NCBI GenBank assembly: GCA_039962225.1
Contig: JAMPKV010000009.1
Coordinates: forward strand, 1 to 64,000
Origin: Microcoleus sp. AS-A8
GTDB lineage: Bacteria > Cyanobacteriota > Cyanobacteriia > Cyanobacteriales > Coleofasciculaceae
Length of the DNA: 64,000 nt
Direction of reading: 5' to 3'
The notes beneath the pieces were generated by a model that saw nothing but the letters and a program-made list of their open reading frames with translations, made no database searches and was not told the origin of the DNA. The first letter of the stretch is position 1. Every line of letters starts with the position of its first letter. A program made the position numbers and the translations under genes. Shown in pieces: positions 50,206 through 61,105 of the stretch.

Positions 50206-50967
50206 ATGCCACAATCTCTCCCCTCATCCTCTCAGACTCTGTCTGAGGACAAATGTCCAACCTGCGTATCCATCAAGTTGGAAGGAAAACTTGTTCAAGC
50301 AGAAAAGCAGGGCATTTTCAACCTCAAGCGTCAATCGGCTCAAACAGACCAAATCAAACTGTACTTGACTCTAAAATTTAAGGAACAGGAACAGCCGTTA
50401 CCCTTTGCTCGCCTTAAGTTTGGTCTAACCGGGGGAGAACTCCAGTTAAGGGTAGAAAATGGGGTAATTTCCCTGGCATCCCCAGGACTGAATGGAGCTT
50501 TTGAACTGTCTGGACAACAAGGAAGACAAAACCAGGAAGGCAGTGACGAACAAAGCTGTGTAACCGTCTCTGTAAAAGAGAAAAAACCTGCAATCAAGGG
50601 GGGTCTTGGTACCCAGAAAATAGCTGAAAAAGCAGAGCAAAACCCCTTGTCTATTTCTCAGGTCAGCACTCAGGGTTCACAGGAAAACTTAACCTGGGCT
50701 GTCTTTGCAGAGCAGAATCATTGTATTTTACAAGGCTCACTCCAGCCTACCTTATTGGGAACGTTGAAGGTAACAGCCAAGCCCTGCCGTGTGGAAGCCT
50801 TTTTTTCTGTATCGCTACAAGATATACGTATCACAGATGCTACAGGTCTGTTACCCCACACGCTCAGTAAAAAGAAGAGGGTAGTTCTCGAAAGAGCGCT
50901 CGTTCGTCGCTTACTCAAGCGAAAATTAAAGTCCTATCTGAGTCGATACGAACTGCGATATGACTAA
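50206..50967 (+). CDS. Conserved partner protein A of the pentapeptide module, copy 1
   Basis: 253 residues. A paralogue of the protein at 58744-59550; both share a Cys near the start (CP-C/PDC), LYLTLKFKEQ/LYLTIYFNEQ, KFGLTGGELQL/KFGLKGGELRL, a disordered Gln/Lys-rich middle, and a C-terminal helix KLKSYLSRYELRYD. The conserved KFGL-GGEL block is predicted beta-rich, and no catalytic site is visible. It overlaps the pentapeptide gene by 8 bp (ATGACTAA), so translation is coupled. The ATG is chosen; TTGGCAATG precedes it identically in both copies. No known family is recognised. Confidence 0.72.
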   Translation: MPQSLPSSSQTLSEDKCPTCVSIKLEGKLVQAEKQGIFNLKRQSAQTDQIKLYLTLKFKEQEQPLPFARLKFGLTGGELQLRVENGVISLASPGLNGAFELSGQQGRQNQEGSDEQSCVTVSVKEKKPAIKGGLGTQKIAEKAEQNPLSISQVSTQGSQENLTWAVFAEQNHCILQGSLQPTLLGTLKVTAKPCRVEAFFSVSLQDIRITDATGLLPHTLSKKKRVVLERALVRRLLKRKLKSYLSRYELRYD

Positions 50968-52012
50968 GGAAGCATTTGCTTTGCAATTTCACCACCTGAC
51001 CCAGCAAATTATGGGAGCGAGAACAGAAGACTTATCCCGATTAGCACAAATTGCTGGTGTCAATCTTTGCGAAGATTTTGTGGGCGTTGATCTGAGCGGT
51101 GAAGATTTGAGTGGGGATAAATTGAGCGGCGCTAACCTGAGCCGCGCCGATTTGAGTGGTACCAATCTGAGCCGTGCTAATCTCAATCGTGCAGATCTTA
51201 AGCATTCGGACTTGAGCGGTGCCGACTTGAGCGGTGCCGACTTGGGCGGTGCTAATTTGAGGGATGCTAATCTAAGCGGTGCTAACCTCAGAGGTGCCAA
51301 CTTCAGAGATGCCAATCTGTGGGGTGCGAATCTCAGTGGTGCGAGCTTAATCAGTAGCAACTTGATCAATGTCAACTTAATCGGGGCTAACTTAAGCAGC
51401 GTTAACTTGAGTAATGCCAATCTCAGGGATGCTAAGCTGAACGGATCTGACTTAAGTGGCGCTAACCTCAGCCATACTGACCTGAGAGATGCCAGTCTAA
51501 TTCATACCAAGATCATCAGTGCCAATCTGAGGGATGCCAACCTGAACGAGGCTGACTTAAGGGGTGCCACTCTGATTAGCGCTACCCTTAACCGTATCAA
51601 CTTAAGGGATGCTAACCTAATCGGAGCTGATTTCAGTGGTGCCGACCTGAGTGAAGCAGATTTGAGTGGTGCTAACCTGCTTAAGGCCAATCTAACTCGT
51701 GCCAATCTCCGTAACACTAACCTGAATGGCGCAAATATGAGCCGTGTCAATCTCAGTGGCGTTAAACTCCATGGTGCCAATCTCCGCAGCACTAACCTGA
51801 ACCGTGCCAACCTGAGTAATGCTAATTTGTGTGGTGCTGATTTTAAGCTGGCTAATCTCAGCCTTGCTAATCTGACCCTTGCGGATGTGAACCAGACCGT
51901 TTTTGCTTACAATTTGGGGATTACAGAAGCAATGAGGCGGGATTTGATCCAACGAGGAGCCATTTTTGAAGATAGGACAGGCGATTGTTCGCAGGTGGTG
52001 ACTCCTTGTTGA
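50960..52012 (+). CDS. Pentapeptide-repeat protein, copy 1 of the module
   Basis: 350 residues. An N-terminal helical cap (HLTQQIMGARTEDLSRLAQIAG..EDF) is followed by about 50 A(N/D)LxX pentapeptides forming a right-handed quadrilateral beta-helix. The C-terminal cap is VFAYNLGITEAMRRDLIQRGAIFEDR. The cap ends match the other two pentapeptide proteins here. It has no signal peptide. Such beta-helices can mimic DNA or act as scaffolds; the actual role is unknown. Cotranslated with partner A. Confidence 0.85.
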   Translation: MTKEAFALQFHHLTQQIMGARTEDLSRLAQIAGVNLCEDFVGVDLSGEDLSGDKLSGANLSRADLSGTNLSRANLNRADLKHSDLSGADLSGADLGGANLRDANLSGANLRGANFRDANLWGANLSGASLISSNLINVNLIGANLSSVNLSNANLRDAKLNGSDLSGANLSHTDLRDASLIHTKIISANLRDANLNEADLRGATLISATLNRINLRDANLIGADFSGADLSEADLSGANLLKANLTRANLRNTNLNGANMSRVNLSGVKLHGANLRSTNLNRANLSNANLCGADFKLANLSLANLTLADVNQTVFAYNLGITEAMRRDLIQRGAIFEDRTGDCSQVVTPC

Positions 52013-52293
52013 AGATCCATAACAGAGGCGATGGCGTGTAACTCATGGTACACACTCATGCCTATGCTCATTAAATCCCTGATTCTTCAACCCCCCACCA
52101 GACATCCTGTTCTCTGCACAAGGAAGTGTTAGATATTACATGGTAATGTTATTCTAGGTTTTCCCTAGGACTGAGGACACGCTTTATTTTTCGCAGTTTT
52201 ACAGCGTGAGTATCCTGGCGAAGACTTGCAATTGTTTGCTGTTATAGGCATAGCAGCAAGAGGTTTCTCCTCGAGCCGAAATGAGCAATTACG

Positions 52294-52821
52294 ATGACTT
52301 CAACAATATCAAAAAAAATCTGCATGTTGGGCGATTTTAGTGTAGGTAAGACCAGCTTGATTCGCCGTTTTGTAGATCGTCAATTTAGTGATCAATATCT
52401 TTCCACAGTCGGTGTGAAAATTTCTAGAAAGACGGTTGAATGCCAATTATTTGAACAGAAAAAACAGGTGAATATACAACTTCTAATCTGGGATTTAGAA
52501 GGAAATACTAAATTTAAGGCAGTGACTCCTACATATTTGCAGGGCGCTAGTAGTGCAGTGGTTGTTGCAGATATTAACCGTCAGGTAACTATCGATCATA
52601 TTTCCGATCATATCCAATGCTTTTTATCGGTTAACCCTAAGGGTTTTGTCATCGTTGCTTTAAACAAATCAGACTTAATAGATGAAGAAACTCGAAAAAA
52701 ATATTTAGAAAGTATTGCGATGAAGGCTCCCGATAAAATAATAGCCACCTATTCAACTTCAGCTAAGACAGGTTTATGCGTTGATGAAATTTTCCAAAAA
52801 CTAGCCTACCAAATGCTCTAA
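52294..52821 (+). CDS. Ras/Rab-like small GTPase
   Basis: 175 residues with G motifs of the Ras superfamily: G1 GDFSVGKT (13-20), switch-I Thr in YLSTVGV, G3 DLEGN (67-71) where Ras has DTAGQ, G4 NKSD and G5 TSAK. Replacement of the catalytic Gln by Asn suggests slow intrinsic GTP hydrolysis. No prenylation site. Prokaryotic Ras-like GTPases of this kind occur next to regulators of polarity, motility or sensing. The gene is 5 bp from the PAS protein gene and clearly cotranscribed. Confidence 0.88.
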   Translation: MTSTISKKICMLGDFSVGKTSLIRRFVDRQFSDQYLSTVGVKISRKTVECQLFEQKKQVNIQLLIWDLEGNTKFKAVTPTYLQGASSAVVVADINRQVTIDHISDHIQCFLSVNPKGFVIVALNKSDLIDEETRKKYLESIAMKAPDKIIATYSTSAKTGLCVDEIFQKLAYQML

Positions 52822-52826
52822 TCCGA

Positions 52827-53600
52827 ATGAATTCTCTCTTGCAGCAACTATTATCTCTTCGCCAAATTGAATATTTGGTTGTGGATCGGGAGTTGAATAT
52901 TTTAGAGACATCCTTAGGAGTCAAGAAGTTTGCCGATTGTCCTCAGGAAGTTAAACCGACAAAACCTGTCTGTCTCGGCTTTCCAGAACTGGTTGGAGTC
53001 GAAGATATTCTCCTTGCTATCCTGGAAGGGCGAAAGGATAGTTTTGAGTTAAAAGGTATTGGACGCTTCTCCCCACAAGGCCACTCATTGTATCTGGATC
53101 TTTATGTACTTAAACCTCAAAATATACAAGATTTAGGGAATCGGTTAGTTATTTTTATTGAAAACGTTACTGACAGAATGGTTTTGGAACAAAAATTCGT
53201 TCAAAGATCGAATGAAGTCACCCTTTTGTTAGAGGCTTGGGATTCTTCCAATGAATATTTAAATAAAATCCTCCAATCTCTGGCTAATGCTTTATTGGTA
53301 ACGACCCGATCAGGAATTATTAAAATGGTCAATCAATCGGCTAACAACTTATTTGGGTATAGCAAAGAGGAATTGATTGGCACGCAACTTTCTAAGCTGA
53401 TCATTGAATACAATCTATTATTAGAAGCCAGTCAACAATATTTTTTAGCCCAAGAATTTTCGCGGGAGGTAGAAGTGGTCGGTCTGACCAAACAGGGAAC
53501 ACAGGTCGCGCTCACATTCTCCTGCTCAGCCATTCAAACTAATAGAGAGAACATCCCAGACTACATTTATGTGGGTCGGAAGATTAGCAAACGCCAGTGA
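52827..53600 (+). CDS. Two-PAS-domain protein coupled to the GTPase
   Basis: 257 residues. A first PAS-like region (about 1-115) ends in VIFIENVTDRMVLEQKF. A short coiled coil leads to a second PAS (about 150-250: ILQSLANALLVTTRSGIIKMVNQSANNLFGYSKEELIGT...). There is no kinase, DNA-binding or cyclase domain, so it probably acts as an adaptor or sensor for the GTPase encoded 5 bp upstream. Confidence 0.8.
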   Translation: MNSLLQQLLSLRQIEYLVVDRELNILETSLGVKKFADCPQEVKPTKPVCLGFPELVGVEDILLAILEGRKDSFELKGIGRFSPQGHSLYLDLYVLKPQNIQDLGNRLVIFIENVTDRMVLEQKFVQRSNEVTLLLEAWDSSNEYLNKILQSLANALLVTTRSGIIKMVNQSANNLFGYSKEELIGTQLSKLIIEYNLLLEASQQYFLAQEFSREVEVVGLTKQGTQVALTFSCSAIQTNRENIPDYIYVGRKISKRQ

Positions 53601-54150
53601 AACCAAAAGCATTCCAGAGCAGCACAGTACGCCCCCTAATCCCCTGAATCATTTTGACTTGATCAACATGGGCAACGGGTGAGCAGGGGAAAATACATAA
53701 GCTACAGCGATGGTACGGAAAACAAAACCTGTCCTGGTATGAACTAGGGGGAGCGCGTAGCATAGCAACCGAAGCCTGAGCGCATTCTCTTAGGCTGCTA
53801 ACTTATCTCTTCCCTCAGGTTAATTCCAGTTTTGCTGTGTCTAACTTAGAAAGAATTTAGGAATAGGTCAGGGTGAGGCATTACACCCATATACCTAGGC
53901 AACCGCTTGAAGCCTCGTGCTAGCCTAGCTTTGTAGCGAAAGCAATCTCTGAACCCCTAATTCCCATCTTAACCATGCTACATCCTCTCCCCGCAACACC
54001 GTTGCCAGAGCCTGAGAATGATTACCCTAAAGGCTTGTTCAGGGAATGGAAGAGAACTCCTGTTGAAGCTTCTCACTTCAACAGAAGCAACAAGGGGTAA
54101 TCTTTGAGTAATCTCCCAGTGAGCGTTTTTCAACTATTTATTATTCTTCG
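53601..54150. other. Intergenic region with a hairpin before the FHA gene
   Basis: About 550 bp without a credible ORF. A 9-bp hairpin (CTGTTGAAG/CTTCAACAG, 54060-54084) lies about 65 bp before the FHA gene. A GCGTAGCATAGCAACCG repeat-like segment is at 53757-53773. Confidence 0.45.
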
Positions 54151-54573
54151 ATGCCTACACAACCCAATCAAAACCATTTATTGATTATTGAAGACGAGAA
54201 GGGACGTAGAGAATTTCCCTTAGAAGAGGCCGTATATTCTATCGGCAGAGACCCCAGTTCTGATATCCGTCTATTCTCTCAGTTTGTCTCTCGCCATCAC
54301 GCGACTTTGGTGCGACGGCAGCGCGAAGATGGCGGTCACTACTATCAGATTGTGGATGGCAATCTCAAAGGGAAACCCAGTGCCAACGGACTTTTGATTA
54401 ATGGTCGCAAACTCCAAGCCCACGATCTTGAAAATGAGGACGAGATTGTGTTTGGTCCGCAGGTGAGTGCCAAATATTACCTGCTCAGACAAACTATCAA
54501 TCCAACGGGGCCACTTGATGAGTTTGACATTACCCTGATCAGTCCTGGAATGATAGACGAGTTTGAAGATTAA
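54151..54573 (+). CDS. FHA-domain protein
   Basis: 140 residues, essentially one FHA domain. Phosphothreonine-binding landmarks are present: SIGRDPSSDIRL, SRHHATLVRR, ANGLLINGRKL and LENEDEIVFGP. FHA proteins bind phosphorylated partners of Ser/Thr kinases. No kinase is adjacent. The C-terminal tail (EFDITLISPGMIDEFED) is acidic. Confidence 0.9.
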   Translation: MPTQPNQNHLLIIEDEKGRREFPLEEAVYSIGRDPSSDIRLFSQFVSRHHATLVRRQREDGGHYYQIVDGNLKGKPSANGLLINGRKLQAHDLENEDEIVFGPQVSAKYYLLRQTINPTGPLDEFDITLISPGMIDEFED

Positions 54574-54643
54574 CAAACCTAGGTTTAGTCTCTACGCGGC
54601 TGAGGAAACCCTAGTAGGGCAAGCAGGACGTAGAATAGAGTAT

Positions 54644-54695
54644 CCCACGGTTGTAGCATTAGCGCAGCTCGGTGTGACGCTAGCGTGACCGTGGG
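54644..54695. repeat. Palindromic repeat downstream of the FHA gene
   Basis: CCCACGGT (54644-54651) and ACCGTGGG (54688-54695) form a perfect 8-bp stem with a 36-nt loop containing a shorter GCG/CGC pair. A REP-like element. Confidence 0.55.
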
Positions 54696-54766
54696 AGGAG
54701 CAATTTTGAGATTAGAGGATGTGAACCCGCATAACGACGTGATCCCACATCGCCGAAAATAAGGGT

Positions 54767-55405
54767 ATGACCAGCAACATGCTCAGGCAACCAGAACAAT
54801 GTATCCAGCTATCGGGTATTAGTTGGCAGACCTATCAAACGTTGTTAGCGGAACTGAGCGAACGTCGATTACGCCTTACTTACAATCGTGGCATCCTCGA
54901 AATCATGGCTCCCTCACCAGAGCATGAGCTTTACAAAAAGTTAGCTAGTCGCTTTGTCGAAACCATCGCTGAAGAACTGAGGATTAGTATCTATCCTCTG
55001 GGTTCCATGACGTTCAACCGTTCAGACCTGACTATGGGTCTAGAACCGGATGAATGTTTTTACATTCAGAATCAAAGTGCGGTTAAAGGCAAAAGGAAAA
55101 TTGACCTGACTCAAGATCCGCCACCTGATTTGGCGATCGAAATCGATATCACCAGTAGTGCCAAAAGCCGCTTAGAAGTTTTTGCCCATATCGGTGTTCC
55201 GGAAATCTGGCGCTACGACGGCATATTTCTGACCCTCTACAAGCTGCAAAATAAGACCTATGTTCCATCCCAGCAAAGTCTTAGTTTTCCAACTTTGTAT
55301 ATAGACAAAGTTGACCATTTTCTGCTTCAGGCTGGAGTCGTGGACTATTTAGAGCTAGTTAGCTCCTTTCGACGCTGGGTTAAAAGCCAGATTCGACAAC
55401 AATAA
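54767..55405 (+). CDS. Uma2-family (DUF820) putative restriction-endonuclease-fold protein
   Basis: 212 residues with the pattern SWQTYQTLLAEL, RGILEIMAPSPEHE, DECFYIQN and PDLAIEIDITSSAKSR, in which the Asp, Glu and Asp/Ser form a PD-(D/E)XK-like centre. Uma2 proteins are highly multiplied in filamentous cyanobacteria and are not linked to a defined function. The downstream end carries a MITE-like repeat. Confidence 0.85.
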   Translation: MTSNMLRQPEQCIQLSGISWQTYQTLLAELSERRLRLTYNRGILEIMAPSPEHELYKKLASRFVETIAEELRISIYPLGSMTFNRSDLTMGLEPDECFYIQNQSAVKGKRKIDLTQDPPPDLAIEIDITSSAKSRLEVFAHIGVPEIWRYDGIFLTLYKLQNKTYVPSQQSLSFPTLYIDKVDHFLLQAGVVDYLELVSSFRRWVKSQIRQQ

Positions 55406-55413
55406 TCAAGAAG

Positions 55414-55531
55414 TAAGCTGAGATGCATCTAAATTGCATACCTTGGTGATGAGATAAAAACTCTTATTCCTTCTGCCTTCTGCCCTCTGCCTTACCTCCT
55501 CGATAATGCAATTTAAATGCCGATTAGCTTA
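55414..55531. repeat. MITE-like element with imperfect terminal inverted repeats
   Basis: The first 26 bp (55414-55439) pair with the last 26 bp (55506-55531) with about five mismatches; the core GCATCTAAATTGCAT/ATGCAATTTAAATGC matches at 14 of 15. The interior holds CCTTCTGCC-type units. Confidence 0.65.
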
Positions 55532-55563
55532 TGAAGGGTGAAGAAAATTTTAGACTTCATCCT

Positions 55564-56943
55564 TTACTGGACTAATTCCTCGATCGCATCCGCATGAGTT
55601 GGCAAAGCGGCTGTGAGTACTTCGCTACCCTCCTCAGTGACCAAAACATCATCTTCAATGCGAATGCCTCGAATATCGTTAAACTGGGCAAGACGCTCCC
55701 AATTGACCACCTCCTGATATTTTGAGCGTAGTTGTTGGTCATGCAAAATTGCCGGGACTTGATAGAACCCTGGTTCAATCGTGACCAGCATTCCCGCTTT
55801 TAAGGGTCGATTGAGTCGCAGGTAGCATAAGCCGAAGCGCGAACTTCGCACTCTTCCTTCTTCATAACCCGCTAAATCTCCCAAATCTTCCATATCATGG
55901 ACATCCAAGCCCAGCAGATGACCCACACCGTGAGGAAAAAACAGGGCATGAGCATCCATTTCGACCAAATCTGACACCTGCCCTTGCAGAATGCCTAAAT
56001 CCACCAAGCCTTGGGCAATCACCGATGCCGCCAACAGATGGATGTCTAAATATTCGATTCCTGGGCGAATTTTGTCGATACAGGCATCATGGGCTGCCAA
56101 AACAATATCGTAGAGGTCGCGTTGAGTGGAGGAAAACTTTCCTGTAACAGGCCAAGTGCGCGTTACATCAGACGCCCAGCCCATCGATGTTTCAGCCCCA
56201 ACATCAGCCAGTAGCAAATCTCCCGGTTGCAAGGGATGGTGATACTGCTCATTATGTAATACTTCACCATGAACCGTGACAATGCCACCATAGGCATCTG
56301 TCATGTTGTGAGCCAGAATTACCTGTTCCATCGCACCCCTGACTTCGGCTTCTAACTTGGCCGTCGGGGTTGCCCTCATTCCCGCTTGATGAGCTTCTAC
56401 GGTGACGGCGGCGGCTTGTCGTAGTTGGGAGAGAGCACCTGCATCATGACAAAATCGCAAAAATGCGATCGCACGGGCTAACTCCAAGTCAATCCCTTGA
56501 GCCGCATCGGCTAGTGCTACGGATCGATTTAAGATTTGAGTTTGTTGCCCATAAGTGATGGCATCTTGAACGGCAATCGTCGCCGCCTCTGTGCCCCGTG
56601 ATGGCAGTTCTGACAGAGGAAAGGCCGCATCAGCCCCAATCTCTTGAGCGATTTCCTCTCGCTTGGGCATCTCCCCATGCCAGAGAGCACTGCTTGGAGG
56701 TGCCTCGTCCATAAACAGTTCTAGCTTTCCACCATGCAGGAAAATTGCCGCATTTTCTAGCGGTAGACCCGCAAAATAAAGGAAGTGGCTGCTCGCCCGA
56801 AACGGGTAAAGATTGGCCGGAAAATTGCGTGAACTGCGCTGCCCCGACCAGAGAATAGCGGGGAAATCGATCACTTTAGCGAGGCGTTGACGGCGCTCTC
56901 GCAGGGTTGTTGCAAGCGTACTGTTATGCTGTAGAGTCTCCAT
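55564..56943 (-). CDS. pepP: Xaa-Pro aminopeptidase (M24B)
   Basis: 459 residues. The N-terminal creatinase-like domain (ASHFLYFAGLPLENAA) precedes the pita-bread catalytic domain. Metal ligands are all visible: the two Asp in LLADVGAETSMGWASDVTRTW, the His in HGVGHLLGLDVHD, and the two Glu in TIEPGFYQ and RIEDDVLVTE. It removes N-terminal residues preceding proline using two Mn2+ or Co2+ ions. Cytoplasmic, alone. Confidence 0.92.
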   Translation of the reverse strand: METLQHNSTLATTLRERRQRLAKVIDFPAILWSGQRSSRNFPANLYPFRASSHFLYFAGLPLENAAIFLHGGKLELFMDEAPPSSALWHGEMPKREEIAQEIGADAAFPLSELPSRGTEAATIAVQDAITYGQQTQILNRSVALADAAQGIDLELARAIAFLRFCHDAGALSQLRQAAAVTVEAHQAGMRATPTAKLEAEVRGAMEQVILAHNMTDAYGGIVTVHGEVLHNEQYHHPLQPGDLLLADVGAETSMGWASDVTRTWPVTGKFSSTQRDLYDIVLAAHDACIDKIRPGIEYLDIHLLAASVIAQGLVDLGILQGQVSDLVEMDAHALFFPHGVGHLLGLDVHDMEDLGDLAGYEEGRVRSSRFGLCYLRLNRPLKAGMLVTIEPGFYQVPAILHDQQLRSKYQEVVNWERLAQFNDIRGIRIEDDVLVTEEGSEVLTAALPTHADAIEELVQ

Positions 56944-56982
56944 AATCAGGAGGGTAGCACGAGACGCTAAAAAGAGCAGCAG

Positions 56983-57249
56983 TTATTCCGGATCGTCATC
57001 ATTCTGGGTATCCTCATCCGGGTTTGTCTTTTGATTAGACTTAGCAGGCTGCTTTTTTTTGAGTTGTTTATTAGATTTTTGCTGCTCAACCTGGGTAGGC
57101 TTCTTTTGGGTTGTATTCTCAGTGGTTTTACCCCCTGGAAAGATTTTTTGGCAACCAGAAAGAGTTAATCCGCTAACGAGTAGTAACAAGACAAAAACGA
57201 CTAAATTAGCCCAAATTGGTTTTTGAATTTTCCTATTTGCTTCCAACAT
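56983..57249 (-). CDS. Small lipoprotein
   Basis: 88 residues. An N-terminal hydrophobic helix ends in a lipobox LTLSGC, where the Cys would be lipidated. The mature part is Lys/Gln/Thr-rich and acidic at the end (EDTQNDDDPE) and is probably unstructured. No family recognised. Confidence 0.65.
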   Translation of the reverse strand: MLEANRKIQKPIWANLVVFVLLLLVSGLTLSGCQKIFPGGKTTENTTQKKPTQVEQQKSNKQLKKKQPAKSNQKTNPDEDTQNDDDPE

Positions 57250-57668
57250 CAGCCACCTTTACTCTTAAAATTTTTAACTTCCTATATACCTAAGTTCGAG
57301 ATAGACTGATAGCCTGATTTTTTCCTCCCCCATTGAAGGCCAAAATTCCTTTTTGTTTCAGGTTACGTCTTTTATAGGGAACTCAAGTTTAATCTTCAGT
57401 CCGGTGGAAGATGCACTCTCTCCAGTGAGTTGTCCTTAGTCTATTATTTTTGCTAACTGATACCAATTCCTAAGCAATAACAATCAACAGGAATTGTCCT
57501 TTAAAAACTCTGCGTTCCTCTGCGCCTTCCTCGGTATCCCTCTGTGTTAAAAAAATAATATTCCGATACTAACAGATTCAATATGAATCCTAACCGAAAC
57601 CCAGAGATTTTCAACTTCAGAGTTTGAGACTCAATCTAATAGCTCCATGTTCCCGTATCTTCTAATTT
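57250..57668. other. Intergenic region with dispersed repeat copy 2
   Basis: About 420 bp; 57500-57585 is related to 27905-28005 (CTCTGCG units, TTAAAAAA, CCGATACTAACAG). No gene seen. Confidence 0.5.
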
Positions 57669-58751
57669 TTAATGAGGCGCTAGAACTTCCGATCGCTCAC
57701 TCGTTGAATCTTCAAAAATTGCCCCCCGCCGCAGCAAGACACGTTGTGTCTGAGCAGAAATTCCTAAATTCCTAGCAAACTGAGCATTCTCGACATCCGC
57801 CCCCCTCAAGTCTGCCTCGCTGAGGTTGGCATCGCTGAGGTTAGCACCACACAATTCAGCAATGCTCAGGTTGGCACGAATCAAGTTGGCACTGCCTAAG
57901 TTAGCAAGGCAGAGGTTGGCAAGGCTCAAGTCGGCAAGACTCAAGTCGGCACCCCTGAGATCCGCACCGCTCAGGTTGGTACGGATTAAGTCCGCATCCC
58001 TGAGGTTGGCGCGCATAAGGTCGGCACTACTCAGGTTGGCACGGATGAGGTTGACATCACTCAAATCGGCAAGACTCAAATTAGCCGCCTTAAGGTTCGT
58101 TCCCCTTAATTTGGCACAATTTAGCTTGGCTTCGCTCAGGTCGGCTTCGGTGAGATCTGCCCCATCGATCTCGGCACCTCTAAGATCAGCACCGCCAAGG
58201 TAGGCACGCCTCAGATAGGCTCCTTTAAGGTTGGCATGGCTCAGGTTCACACGACCCAAGTTGGCTCCCCGGAGTTTGGCATCGCTTAAGCTCACCCCTT
58301 GAAGGTTAGCATCCCTGATATCGGCCCCCCTCAGGTCGGCACCTCTGAGATTGGCACTACAAAGTATCGTTTCGCTGAGGTTGGTATCGCTCAGGTTCGC
58401 AGTGTGTAACTGAGTACTCTTGAGGTCAGCGCCCTTAAGGTTGGCACCTCTAAGGTTGGCACCTCTAAGGTTGGCATTGTCAAGATGAGCACCCCTAAGA
58501 TCCGTCCCCCTGAGGTCAGCACCTTGGAGATGAGCACCTCTAAGATCAGCTCCCCTCAGGTTGCAACCTCTAAAATCAGCCTCAATCAGATCGGCTTGAC
58601 TCAAATCAGTACCGCTCAAGTCAGCTTCGGCAAAATCTTCAGCAAGATTGAGACCCGCCAGGGTTGCGAGTTGCTCCAGATTGTCTGTTTCTGTTTCTAC
58701 AATTCGCTGGATCAGGATTTGCAGATCCAGTCGAGATTGGTCATCACTCAT
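57669..58751 (-). CDS. Pentapeptide-repeat protein, copy 2 of the module
   Basis: 360 residues, closely parallel to 50960-52012: helical cap (LQILIQRIVETETDNLEQLATLAGLNLAEDF), more than 50 A(N/D)L-type pentapeptides and the same C-terminal cap (ENAQFARNLGISAQTQRVLLRRGAIFED), given here only by their key residues. It overlaps the upstream partner gene by 8 bp. Probably cytoplasmic, with no signal peptide. The whole pair is inverted relative to copy 1. Confidence 0.87.
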   Translation of the reverse strand: MSDDQSRLDLQILIQRIVETETDNLEQLATLAGLNLAEDFAEADLSGTDLSQADLIEADFRGCNLRGADLRGAHLQGADLRGTDLRGAHLDNANLRGANLRGANLKGADLKSTQLHTANLSDTNLSETILCSANLRGADLRGADIRDANLQGVSLSDAKLRGANLGRVNLSHANLKGAYLRRAYLGGADLRGAEIDGADLTEADLSEAKLNCAKLRGTNLKAANLSLADLSDVNLIRANLSSADLMRANLRDADLIRTNLSGADLRGADLSLADLSLANLCLANLGSANLIRANLSIAELCGANLSDANLSEADLRGADVENAQFARNLGISAQTQRVLLRRGAIFEDSTSERSEVLAPH

Positions 58752-59550
58752 AATGCAACTCCGCTCGACTCAGATAGGGCTTTAATTTGGGTTCCAGCAA
58801 ACGCTGGATAATGAGTCTGTCTAACACTGCCCTTTTATTCCGACTAATGTCTGGCGGCCATAATCCTTCAGCATCCGTTAGACACACATCTCGCTTGGAA
58901 ACTTCAAACCTTGCTTCTATGCGACAAGGCAAGGCAAGTACATTAACAGTGGCAAGTTTGACCTGATTGAGTACCCCTTTTAATACAGGTTCACCAATTT
59001 CTTCTTCAAAAATCCAGACAGGATTTTCCTCGCTCACTTTAGTTGTTACGTGGCAAACTGTAACGGAAGCTTCAGGTGGAGACGGCTTTGGCTGTGTACC
59101 AAAATTTATCTGAGCTTGAGGTTTATTACCGTTGAAGTTAGAGATAATGGTGATTGGTTTTGCCGCCGCCCTTGGCGCAATTGCCTGTCCCAACGTACTC
59201 TTTCGCTCCTGACTCCTGTCGCGCTCTTGCTTTTTTGGGGAGTTTTTCAATTCAAGGGAGCCGACTAACTCACGAGACTCATAGGGAATTTCACTGTTTT
59301 CCAGTTTGAGTCTGAGTTCTCCACCTTTTAGGCCAAACTTAACGCGTCCCTTGTCCAGGGATTCCCACTGCTCGTTAAAGTAGATGGTCAAGTACAGGTC
59401 AATCGGTTGCCTCTGGGTTGAGGTTGTCCAAAATGCTGGATGCTCTGGGTTGTTGGGTTGAACCACAGTTCCGGCCAACTCCATATATAAGCAATCTGGA
59501 TATTTGTTTTCAGGCTCCGGCTGAGGCTGTTTTGAAAGGGGAGGATGCAT
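58744..59550 (-). CDS. Conserved partner protein A of the pentapeptide module, copy 2
   Basis: 268 residues. Homologous to 50206-50967 over both ends: YMELAGTVV, LYLTIYFNEQ, KFGLKGGELRLKLEN, then a Lys/Pro-rich linker and LKPYLSRAELHYE. The linker between the beta-rich halves is longer and differs in composition. The ATGAGTGA overlap with the pentapeptide gene repeats the geometry of copy 1, which implies conserved coupling. Function unknown; not a fragment of a known enzyme as far as I can see. Confidence 0.72.
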   Translation of the reverse strand: MHPPLSKQPQPEPENKYPDCLYMELAGTVVQPNNPEHPAFWTTSTQRQPIDLYLTIYFNEQWESLDKGRVKFGLKGGELRLKLENSEIPYESRELVGSLELKNSPKKQERDRSQERKSTLGQAIAPRAAAKPITIISNFNGNKPQAQINFGTQPKPSPPEASVTVCHVTTKVSEENPVWIFEEEIGEPVLKGVLNQVKLATVNVLALPCRIEARFEVSKRDVCLTDAEGLWPPDISRNKRAVLDRLIIQRLLEPKLKPYLSRAELHYE

Positions 59551-60205: not shown

Positions 60206-61105
60206 TCACAGATTAGCCAAGCTGTAGCGCTCGCGTTCACCCTTCCCCCCCTGAAAAATTGCCCCTTGACGAATTAAATCCAGTTGTGTTTGCTCGCAAA
60301 TGCCTAAATTTCTAGAGAACAGAGCGTTTTTGACCGTGACACCTCGCCGCTTGCTGTCACTGAGATTGGCACTACTGAGATTGGCACCACTGAGATTGGC
60401 ACCACTGAGATTGGCACCACTGAGATTGGCACCACTGAGATTGGCACCACTGAGATTGGCAAGGCTCAGATCAGCTCCGATCAGATCGGCTCCACACAAG
60501 CTAGTTGAGCGTAAATCGGCACAAATGAGATCTGCTAAGCAGACGTTGGCACGAATTAAGACGGCATAGCGCAAATCAGCCCGAATCAAGTTAACCCCGC
60601 TGAGGTTGGTCGCACCCAAGCTAGAACCACACAGGTTGGCTCCTCCCAGATTGGCCCCGCCCAAGTTAGCTTGGCTCAGTTCTGCTCCGCCCAAGTTGGC
60701 TCCTCTCAAATCAGCTTCGCTCAAGTCAGCACGGAGCAAATTGGCAACAATCAAATTTGCATAGCTCAAATTAGCGTGATTCAAGTTGGATTCGCTCAGG
60801 TTGGCCCGCATGAGGTTGGCATGGCTCAAATCAGCCTCACTCAAGTTGGCCTCGCTCAAGTTGGCCTCGATCAGAATGGCACCTCTAATGTTGGCACCAC
60901 TGAAGTTAGTCCCACTGAGGTTAGCATTACCCAGGATTGCACCCCTGAGGCTGGTATTTCTCAGATCAGCTCCAGCAAAATCTTCAGCAGGATTGAGACG
61001 CGCAATTTTCACGATCTCTGAAAGATTGTCGGTTTCTGCTGTGATTACACATTGGATCAGGTCTTGCAGTTCCTGGAGCGACTGTTCGTCAATCGTGTCA
61101 ATCAT
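60206..61105 (-). CDS. Pentapeptide-repeat protein, solitary third copy
   Basis: 299 residues with the same helical cap (AETDNLSEIVKIARLNPAEDF) and C-terminal cap (NALFSRNLGICEQTQ, RQGAIFQGG) as the two module copies, so it belongs to the same family. It has no partner A gene next to it. Near its C-terminus are five identical LSGAN repeats plus LSSAN, encoded by identical 15-bp units, a sign of recent expansion. It lies 88 bp downstream of the response-regulator gene on the same strand. Confidence 0.85.
   Translation of the reverse strand: MIDTIDEQSLQELQDLIQCVITAETDNLSEIVKIARLNPAEDFAGADLRNTSLRGAILGNANLSGTNFSGANIRGAILIEANLSEANLSEADLSHANLMRANLSESNLNHANLSYANLIVANLLRADLSEADLRGANLGGAELSQANLGGANLGGANLCGSSLGATNLSGVNLIRADLRYAVLIRANVCLADLICADLRSTSLCGADLIGADLSLANLSGANLSGANLSGANLSGANLSGANLSSANLSDSKRRGVTVKNALFSRNLGICEQTQLDLIRQGAIFQGGKGERERYSLANL
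60361..60465. repeat. 15-bp tandem array inside the solitary pentapeptide gene
   Basis: Seven consecutive 15-bp units. Five copies of TGAGATTGGCACCAC (60376-60450) are identical; the first and last differ slightly. Confidence 0.85.

What the first reader, a model, noticed from the sequence alone, without database searches (positions are those of the whole stretch)
50206..59550. Duplicated two-gene module: unknown protein A overlapping a pentapeptide-repeat protein
Both copies (50206-52012 and 57669-59550) have the same order and the same 8-bp start-stop overlap. The A proteins share KFGL-GGEL and the LKxYLSRxEL C-terminus; the pentapeptide proteins share unusual N- and C-terminal caps. Conservation of the overlap in inverted copies implies the pair works as one unit. 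I know of no description of this pairing.
Basis: partly seen in the sequence, partly recalled or inferred. Interest (0 to 1): 0.72.

Follow-up and report, generated by a model that had tools for sequence, protein, structure and literature searches.

The report
Two-part docking module on pentapeptide proteins
In many cyanobacteria an undescribed protein domain is made together with, or fused to, proteins that begin with a short helical tag and usually continue as a pentapeptide-repeat rod, which looks like a plug-and-socket system for attaching one regulatory part to interchangeable working parts.

Summary
Two paralogous gene pairs (50206-52012 +, 57669-59550 -) each encode an uncharacterised protein A whose stop codon overlaps the start of a pentapeptide-repeat (PPR) gene by 8 nt. 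The interpretation needs changing. Across Cyanobacteria, A's constant partner is a ~35-residue helical domain ("H") at the start of the PPR gene, not the repeats themselves. Of 89 distinct A domains, 56 are followed by an H gene (44 with exactly 8-nt overlap), 28 are fused A-linker-H-PPR, and 5 lack a nearby H. After H the protein is usually PPR, but can also carry cNMP-binding, S24 peptidase, kinase+GTPase, GAF, NfeD or ribosomal-L5 domains; in Microcystis there is no PPR. In one other family, A is reduced to a ~75-residue gene keeping only A's C-terminal helix, upstream of the H gene in 29 of 30 genomes. Best explanation: A is a beta-sandwich adaptor whose C-terminal helix docks on H, in cis or in trans, coupling A to exchangeable effectors. 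No Pfam or NCBIfam model covers A or H, and the searches of open literature found no description. Binding and cellular role are inferred, not shown.

The parts
50206..50967 (+). A1: 253-aa protein A, beta-sandwich plus C-terminal helix
   Evidence: ORF; homologous to A2; no Pfam/NCBIfam match
50827..50946 (+). A1 C-terminal 'docking' segment (TGLLPHTLSKKKRVVLERALVRRLLKRKLKSYLSR)
   Evidence: corresponds to A2 residues 223-262; most conserved part of A and the only part kept in mini-A genes
50960..50967 (+). 8-nt start/stop overlap, ATGACTAA
   Evidence: sequence
50960..52012 (+). PPR1: H domain + pentapeptide repeats + C-cap, 350 aa
   Evidence: Pfam PF00805 E 5e-108
50984..51088 (+). H domain of PPR1
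   Evidence: A4 profile, E 5e-14
58744..59550 (-). A2: 268-aa protein A
   Evidence: ORF; AlphaFold2 model with core pLDDT above 90
58765..58884 (-). A2 C-terminal docking segment (residues 223-262, helix 237-256)
58744..58751 (-). 8-nt start/stop overlap, ATGAGTGA
   Evidence: sequence
57669..58751 (-). PPR2: H domain + pentapeptide repeats + C-cap, 360 aa
   Evidence: Pfam PF00805 E 5e-96
58623..58727 (-). H domain of PPR2
   Evidence: A4 profile, E 3e-14
60206..61105 (-). PPR3: third H+PPR gene, 299 aa, about 650 nt upstream of A2 on the same strand, without its own A
   Evidence: same H domain; an H-type PPR gene also sits upstream of A2 in L005, L006, L008 and L010
60968..61072 (-). H domain of PPR3
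   Evidence: A4 profile, E 7e-18
52294..52821 (+). Ras-like small GTPase next to copy 1
   Evidence: PF00071 E 1e-26; adjacent to copy 1 in the sister genome (L039) and just before A in Symploca (L036, L043)

Best explanation
A and the N-terminal helical domain H of the downstream gene are the two halves of a heterotypic docking pair. A is a cytosolic beta-sandwich domain ending in a conserved segment (GLWPxDISxNKxAVLERxI) that forms a helix. This helix packs against H, which sits on the N-terminal end of the pentapeptide rod (or of another effector). The two are joined covalently in the widespread A-linker-H-PPR proteins. In the window's family they are encoded as two genes with an 8-nt overlap, so that translational coupling gives matched amounts and assembly at the ribosome. 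H marks what may be attached: mostly a PPR rod, sometimes with a signalling or effector domain behind it. A is the constant regulatory or sensing part. Shown: gene order, overlap, fusions, co-occurrence, exchange of domains behind H, and selective retention of the C-terminal helix. Inferred: physical binding, binding by that helix, and a regulatory role for A.
For: Fusions: 28 distinct A-(16-31 aa)-H-PPR proteins, one in the sister species. Adjacency: 56 split A genes are followed by an H gene, 44 with exactly 8 nt overlap, in 12 of 14 clusters. Co-occurrence over 293 genomes: 154/8/11/120. Several A-only genomes carry fused proteins whose H has diverged. H is constant while the rest changes: cNMP-binding, S24 peptidase followed by UmuC-type polymerase, NfeD-C; kinase+GTPase, GAF, aspartyl-protease-like; ribosomal L5; no PPR in Microcystis. 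Docking helix: f38 and f12 genomes carry a 70-94 aa mini-A gene that keeps only A columns ~207-254. The f38 version matches A by hhalign (probability 93%, E 4e-7). In f38 mini-A is in 30 of 42 genomes, all of which have H, and lies 115-504 nt upstream of H on the same strand in 29. In 26 fused proteins the only invariant residues of the A part (L184, W185, P191, N192) fall in this segment. The fused protein is modelled with pTM 0.82 and pLDDT 87, high for two independent domains. Gene pairs from -8 to +10 nt are enriched in subunits of complexes (PMC10666635).
Against: No interaction has been measured, and no two-chain prediction or interdomain error map was available. PPR3, 11 genomes and many f38 genes show H without a full A. 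The mini-A genes are 115-504 nt from H, so strict translational coupling is not universal. H without PPR is seen in one lineage only (Microcystis). Neighbouring conserved genes may work in one pathway without touching. Conservation of A's last residues is partly forced by the overlap.
Confidence: 0.66

Rival explanations
1. A is a dedicated folding cap or chaperone for the pentapeptide tower: its C-terminal helix together with H closes the N-terminal end of the beta-helix, and A has no separate regulatory role.
For: In solved PPR proteins helices cap the ends of the tower (PMC8145042). Alignments of the fused model to several PPR structures begin at A's C-terminal helix, residues 190-195, consistent with that helix sitting at the cap position. 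The fused form is common.
Against: H occurs without PPR in Microcystis with A still overlapping it. PPR3 and the f38 proteins have H+PPR without the A sandwich. Most PPR proteins fold without any A.
Confidence: 0.17
2. A and H-PPR act in one pathway and are only co-transcribed; the overlap is ordinary operon compaction with no direct binding.
For: Short overlaps are common in prokaryotes; only about 30% of such close pairs in E. coli encode subunits of one complex.
Against: 28 one-chain fusions, a mini-A gene kept next to H in 29 of 30 genomes, and constant H with changing C-termini.
Confidence: 0.1
3. The pair is part of an anti-invader or programmed-cell-death system in which A senses and the H protein is the effector, like the constant-component plus variable-effector systems of multicellular prokaryotes.
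For: Constant 5' gene and variable 3' gene parallels the EACC1 two-gene systems (PMC7159879). In Moorena a copy of A sits at the end of a caspase-NB-ARC-TPR locus. The effectors include a kinase, a GTPase and a UmuD-like peptidase.
Against: No PADLOC hit for A1, A2, PPR1 or PPR2. Distribution is broad and many genomes outside the window's family show a single fused gene, and dN/dS is low. The Moorena locus is split by a frame change and recently derived.
Confidence: 0.07

Closest known systems
EACC1 two-gene systems (effector-associated constant component 1; PMC7159879)
   Same: 5' gene constant, 3' gene with a constant N-terminal part and variable C-terminal domains; adjacent pair
   Different: EACC1 is a transmembrane protein paired with a caspase; A is soluble, a predicted beta-sandwich, and its partner starts with H. 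No Pfam match of A or H.
Effector-associated domains (EADs) and bacterial Death-like domains (PMC7159879, PMC8195603)
   Same: Small helical domain at the terminus of diverse effectors, in cyanobacteria
   Different: EADs couple by two copies of the same domain; here A carries no H, so the coupling would be heterotypic
HetL-HetR (PMC7476756)
   Same: A cyanobacterial pentapeptide protein acting through a protein partner
   Different: HetL is described as a single-domain pentapeptide protein; HetR is not a match to A in any search made here
Pentapeptide-repeat proteins (PF00805), e.g. Alr5209, Rfr23, NleL
   Same: PPR1, PPR2 and PPR3 belong here by sequence; the fused relative also by modelled fold
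   Different: No solved member matches the A or H domains by sequence
Cohesin-dockerin (works like, not a member)
   Same: A beta-sandwich module paired with a small helical tag carried by different working domains
   Different: No sequence relation found; dockerin features of H not tested; no secretion signal seen on A or H

Membership tests
Pentapeptide-repeat protein (PF00805) | at least 8 tandem A(D/N)LXX repeats | tested here: met
   PPR1, PPR2 and PPR3: PF00805 E 5e-108, 5e-96, 6e-95
Pentapeptide-repeat protein (PF00805) | right-handed quadrilateral beta-helix | tested here: met
   Model of the fused relative matches PPR structures, e.g. 2g0y Z 20.4, 1.6 A over 121 residues; the window's own PPR genes were not modelled
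Effector-associated domain (EAD) systems | the same small domain on both the core component and the effector | tested here: not met
   H profile finds only the H genes in the window genome, not A1 or A2
EACC1 two-gene system | 5' protein with a single conserved transmembrane helix | tested here: not met
   Hydropathy of A1 and A2 peaks at 0.83 and 1.27 over 19 residues, no TM segment; no Pfam match
EACC1 two-gene system | 3' protein with N-terminal caspase-type peptidase | tested here: not met
   3' proteins start with H; Pfam finds no peptidase C14 in any H protein scanned
alpha-2-macroglobulin receptor-binding-like beta-sandwich | shared fold with sequence relationship | tested here: inconclusive
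   VIA-align Z 11.2, 3.0 A over 123 residues, 6% identity (1edy), with many unrelated sandwiches at Z 9-10; no sequence match
Known anti-phage defence families (PADLOC) | match to a defence-system model | tested here: not met
   No hit for A1, A2, PPR1 or PPR2
RfrA (manganese uptake regulator, Synechocystis) | 398-aa protein with the pentapeptide domain at the N-terminus | tested here: not met
   Published description (PMC8145042); in the fused A-H-PPR proteins the repeats are C-terminal. RfrA's own sequence was not compared
Cohesin-dockerin | calcium-binding F-hand pair in dockerin | not tested
   No direct comparison made

The most novel reading that the evidence does not exclude
A and H are a previously undescribed heterotypic docking system that is nearly confined to, and widespread in, Cyanobacteria. 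The docking element is the C-terminal helix of A, which survives alone as a mini-gene family. Through H it recruits exchangeable effectors (PPR rods, kinase, cNMP sensor, UmuD-like peptidase, ribosomal protein L5) to a constant sensing part.
Probability: 0.5. Interest if true: 0.75.

Novelty: new variant of a known kind. Interest (0 to 1): 0.6.

Why it matters
More than a quarter of all pentapeptide-repeat sequences are cyanobacterial, and their biochemical roles there are almost completely unknown (PMC8145042). HetL-HetR was described as only the second protein complex known for such a protein (PMC7476756). A dedicated partner domain found in more than half of the sampled genomes of the order gives a concrete handle. 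It predicts a binding site, a deletion that should abolish binding, and single-copy fused genes that can be knocked out. It also gives profiles for two unclassified domains, and natural domain swaps (ribosomal L5, UmuD-like peptidase, kinase, cNMP sensor) with which to ask what the tag is for.

Tried and rejected
Foldseek's top hits for A (pore-forming toxins, E 5e-4) were rejected: TM-score about 0.25-0.3 and rmsd 14-25 A make them spurious. The macroglobulin receptor-binding-like fold was kept only as a fold resemblance. RfrA as a relative: rejected, because its repeats are N-terminal. Synpcc7942_1361 (2-nonanone study): a signal-peptide PPR gene with no link to A seen. EAD and EACC1 membership: no homotypic domain, no TM helix, no Pfam match; TRADD-N was noted from the papers but not compared directly. 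The class-level search with the fused alignment hits 307 of 390 genomes, but mostly through the repeats, so its count was not used. My first regex-based detection of H missed half of the partners and was replaced by a profile. The own-genome third copy was first read as frameshifted; comparison with the sister species shows that homology simply stops at A residue ~205, so the front of A is missing, not shifted. The careful tree did not finish; the quick tree was used only for 'fused is one side of a branch' (SH-aLRT 92) and for placing the two copies apart; the root, and hence whether fused or split came first, is unknown.
Full report
THE OBSERVATION. Two gene pairs are present exactly where stated. 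A1 (50206-50967 +) overlaps PPR1 (50960-52012 +) by 8 nt, and A2 (58744-59550 -) overlaps PPR2 (57669-58751 -) by 8 nt. A1 and A2 are homologous over their whole length (36% identity, E 9e-51). Neither matches any Pfam or NCBIfam model, nor do 31 relatives consistently match one. No solved structure is related by sequence. PPR1, PPR2 and a third gene, PPR3 (60206-61105 -), are pentapeptide-repeat proteins. All five are under purifying selection between the window genome and its sister species (dN/dS 0.10-0.29). The window genome belongs to a GTDB family whose named members include Coleofasciculus, Symploca, Moorena and Symplocastrum (names matched through shared loci, an inference).

A IS A FAMILY. 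In the window's family 21 of 22 genomes have A, with up to five matches each. In 293 genomes of the order, 162 have it. In a sparser sample of the phylum 47 of 386 do. A pattern scan of 84,980 bacterial and archaeal species genomes found 43 loci, all cyanobacterial, with the caveat that the scan uses two short patterns. A1 and A2 lie in different clades of the A tree, so the duplication is old.

THE PARTNER IS H, NOT THE REPEATS. Reading the downstream genes showed a ~35-residue, apparently helical domain at their start (consensus xLxxxIQxIxxAxTDNFxELAxIAxLNPxxDFAGA), called H here. It has no relative in solved structures beyond its last residues, which run into the repeats. Among 89 distinct A domains, 56 are followed by an H gene, 28 are fused in one chain as A-linker(16-31 aa)-H-PPR, and 5 have no H in reach. 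Of those 5, two are the Moorena loci described below, one is at a contig end, one is a Symploca A with no H gene nearby, and one is the second of two tandem A genes. What follows H varies: PPR alone (most); PPR plus cNMP-binding domain (Moorena); PPR plus S24 peptidase, followed by a UmuC-type polymerase gene (L064); PPR plus NfeD C-terminal domain (L104); PPR plus protein kinase plus GTPase (L196); PPR plus GAF (L207); PPR plus an aspartyl-protease-like domain (L205); PPR plus complete ribosomal protein L5 (L220). In Microcystis the part behind H has no repeats and no Pfam match. Across the 293 genomes A and H occur together in 154, A alone in 8, H alone in 11, neither in 120. Related genomes and fused proteins inflate this, so no p-value is claimed. 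In the window genome the full-length H profile finds four places: PPR1, PPR2, PPR3 and a locus on another contig.

THE OVERLAP. 44 of 56 split pairs overlap by exactly 8 nt, present in 12 of 14 clusters made at 50% identity. In most pairs the overlap makes A end in Tyr-Asp or Tyr-Glu and the H protein begin Met-Ser, Met-Thr or Met-Asn, so part of the 'conserved C-terminus' is tied to the overlap. In the literature, pairs spaced -8 to +10 nt are enriched 4.5-fold (E. coli) to 8-fold (Haloferax) in subunits of one complex, and -8 couples less efficiently than shorter overlaps (PMC10666635).

THE DOCKING HELIX. Three observations point to A's C-terminal helix as the part that goes with H. (i) In an alignment of 26 fused proteins the only invariant residues of the A part (L184, W185, P191, N192) lie in the segment GLWxHDIxPN that leads into this helix. 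(ii) Where A has been lost or shortened, this piece remains: fused to H-PPR in L194, L198 and L201 and in the window genome itself, where homology to the sister's intact fused gene stops at A residue ~205. This is weak by itself, since it is simply the piece nearest to H. (iii) In another family (f38) and in f12 genomes a separate 70-94 aa gene upstream of the H gene keeps only this segment. The f38 profile matches A columns 222-254 (hhalign probability 93%, E 4e-7). In 42 f38 genomes it occurs in 30, all of which have H; one further genome has H only, eleven have neither. In 29 of the 30 it lies 115-504 nt upstream of H on the same strand. A separate gene that keeps only this helix next to H is the strongest single argument.

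STRUCTURE. A2 is modelled as a beta-sandwich with a long C-terminal helix (residues 237-256) and a final strand; most of the core is above pLDDT 90, with a disordered loop at 107-160. The best structural resemblance is the alpha-macroglobulin receptor-binding domain (Z 11.2, 3.0 A over 123 residues), with many unrelated sandwiches close behind, so this is a fold resemblance only. A fused relative (L098) is modelled with mean pLDDT 87 and pTM 0.82. In comparisons with solved PPR proteins several alignments begin at A's C-terminal helix (for example 2o6w from residue 194, NleL from 191), consistent with it sitting at the N-terminal cap of the tower.

MECHANISM. Most likely A and H are a heterotypic docking pair: A's C-terminal helix packs on H at the base of the pentapeptide rod, covalently linked in the widespread fused form and as two coupled subunits in the window. 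H would be the tag that lets different working domains join A. What A senses or does is not known; no Pfam domain or membrane segment was found. The neighbourhood gives one hint: a Ras-like GTPase adjoins copy 1 in the window and its sister, and lies just before A in Symploca. In Moorena a copy of A ends a caspase-NB-ARC-TPR locus, but a frame change splits that locus and it is recently derived.

COMPARISON. The organisation (constant part plus variable effectors) resembles the EACC1 and effector-associated-domain systems of multicellular prokaryotes (PMC7159879; PMC8195603). It fails their defining features: no transmembrane helix, no caspase in the H proteins, and no copy of the same domain on both partners. 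No description of A, H or their pairing was found in the open-access library; subscription journals were mostly not searchable. I therefore rate it a new variant of a known kind: new domains in a familiar kind of organisation.

LIMITS. No binding or function has been measured. Sampling is uneven and relatives are not independent. Start codons are predicted. The H profile is short. The tree is a quick one without a root. Numbers of 'H without A' outside the order are not reliable because repeats dominate the profile used there.

Noticed in passing
L220:1573-2619 (+): H-PPR protein fused to a complete ribosomal protein L5 (Pfam L5 N- and C-terminal domains), encoded directly after an A gene whose extra N-terminal extension looks like a helix-turn-helix.
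   Followed up: partly
L094:1725-4729 (+), also L095/L030: Moorena locus: caspase and NB-ARC domains in one frame, TPR plus an A domain in an overlapping frame; the same arrangement in two Moorena genomes, either a shared frameshift or two genes.
   Followed up: partly
L064:2198-3720 (+): H-PPR-S24 peptidase (UmuD-like) gene overlapping a UmuC-type polymerase gene, so an A gene heads an apparent SOS-polymerase operon.
   Followed up: no
L196:1773-4676 (+): A 968-aa H-PPR protein with a Ser/Thr kinase domain and a GTPase domain; the kinase part matches PADLOC PD-T4-6 kinase models, probably as a general kinase match.
   Followed up: no
window 52294-53600 (+): Ras-like GTPase followed by a PAS protein next to copy 1; the GTPase also neighbours A in Symploca genomes in a different gene order.
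   Followed up: partly
window 60206-61105 (-): Third H-PPR gene upstream of A2; an H-type PPR gene in this position recurs in L005, L006, L008 and L010, so A2 may serve two partners.
   Followed up: partly
window 50989-51420 (-), 51502-51810 (-), 57826-58203 (+), 60671-61021 (+): Long open frames antisense to the pentapeptide genes, produced by the repeat periodicity; not genes.
   Followed up: no
L110:4710-5546 (+) and other Microcystis loci: H followed by a ~230-residue domain with no Pfam match that appears to have replaced the pentapeptide repeats, since sister loci L118 and L195 keep the repeats.
   Followed up: partly
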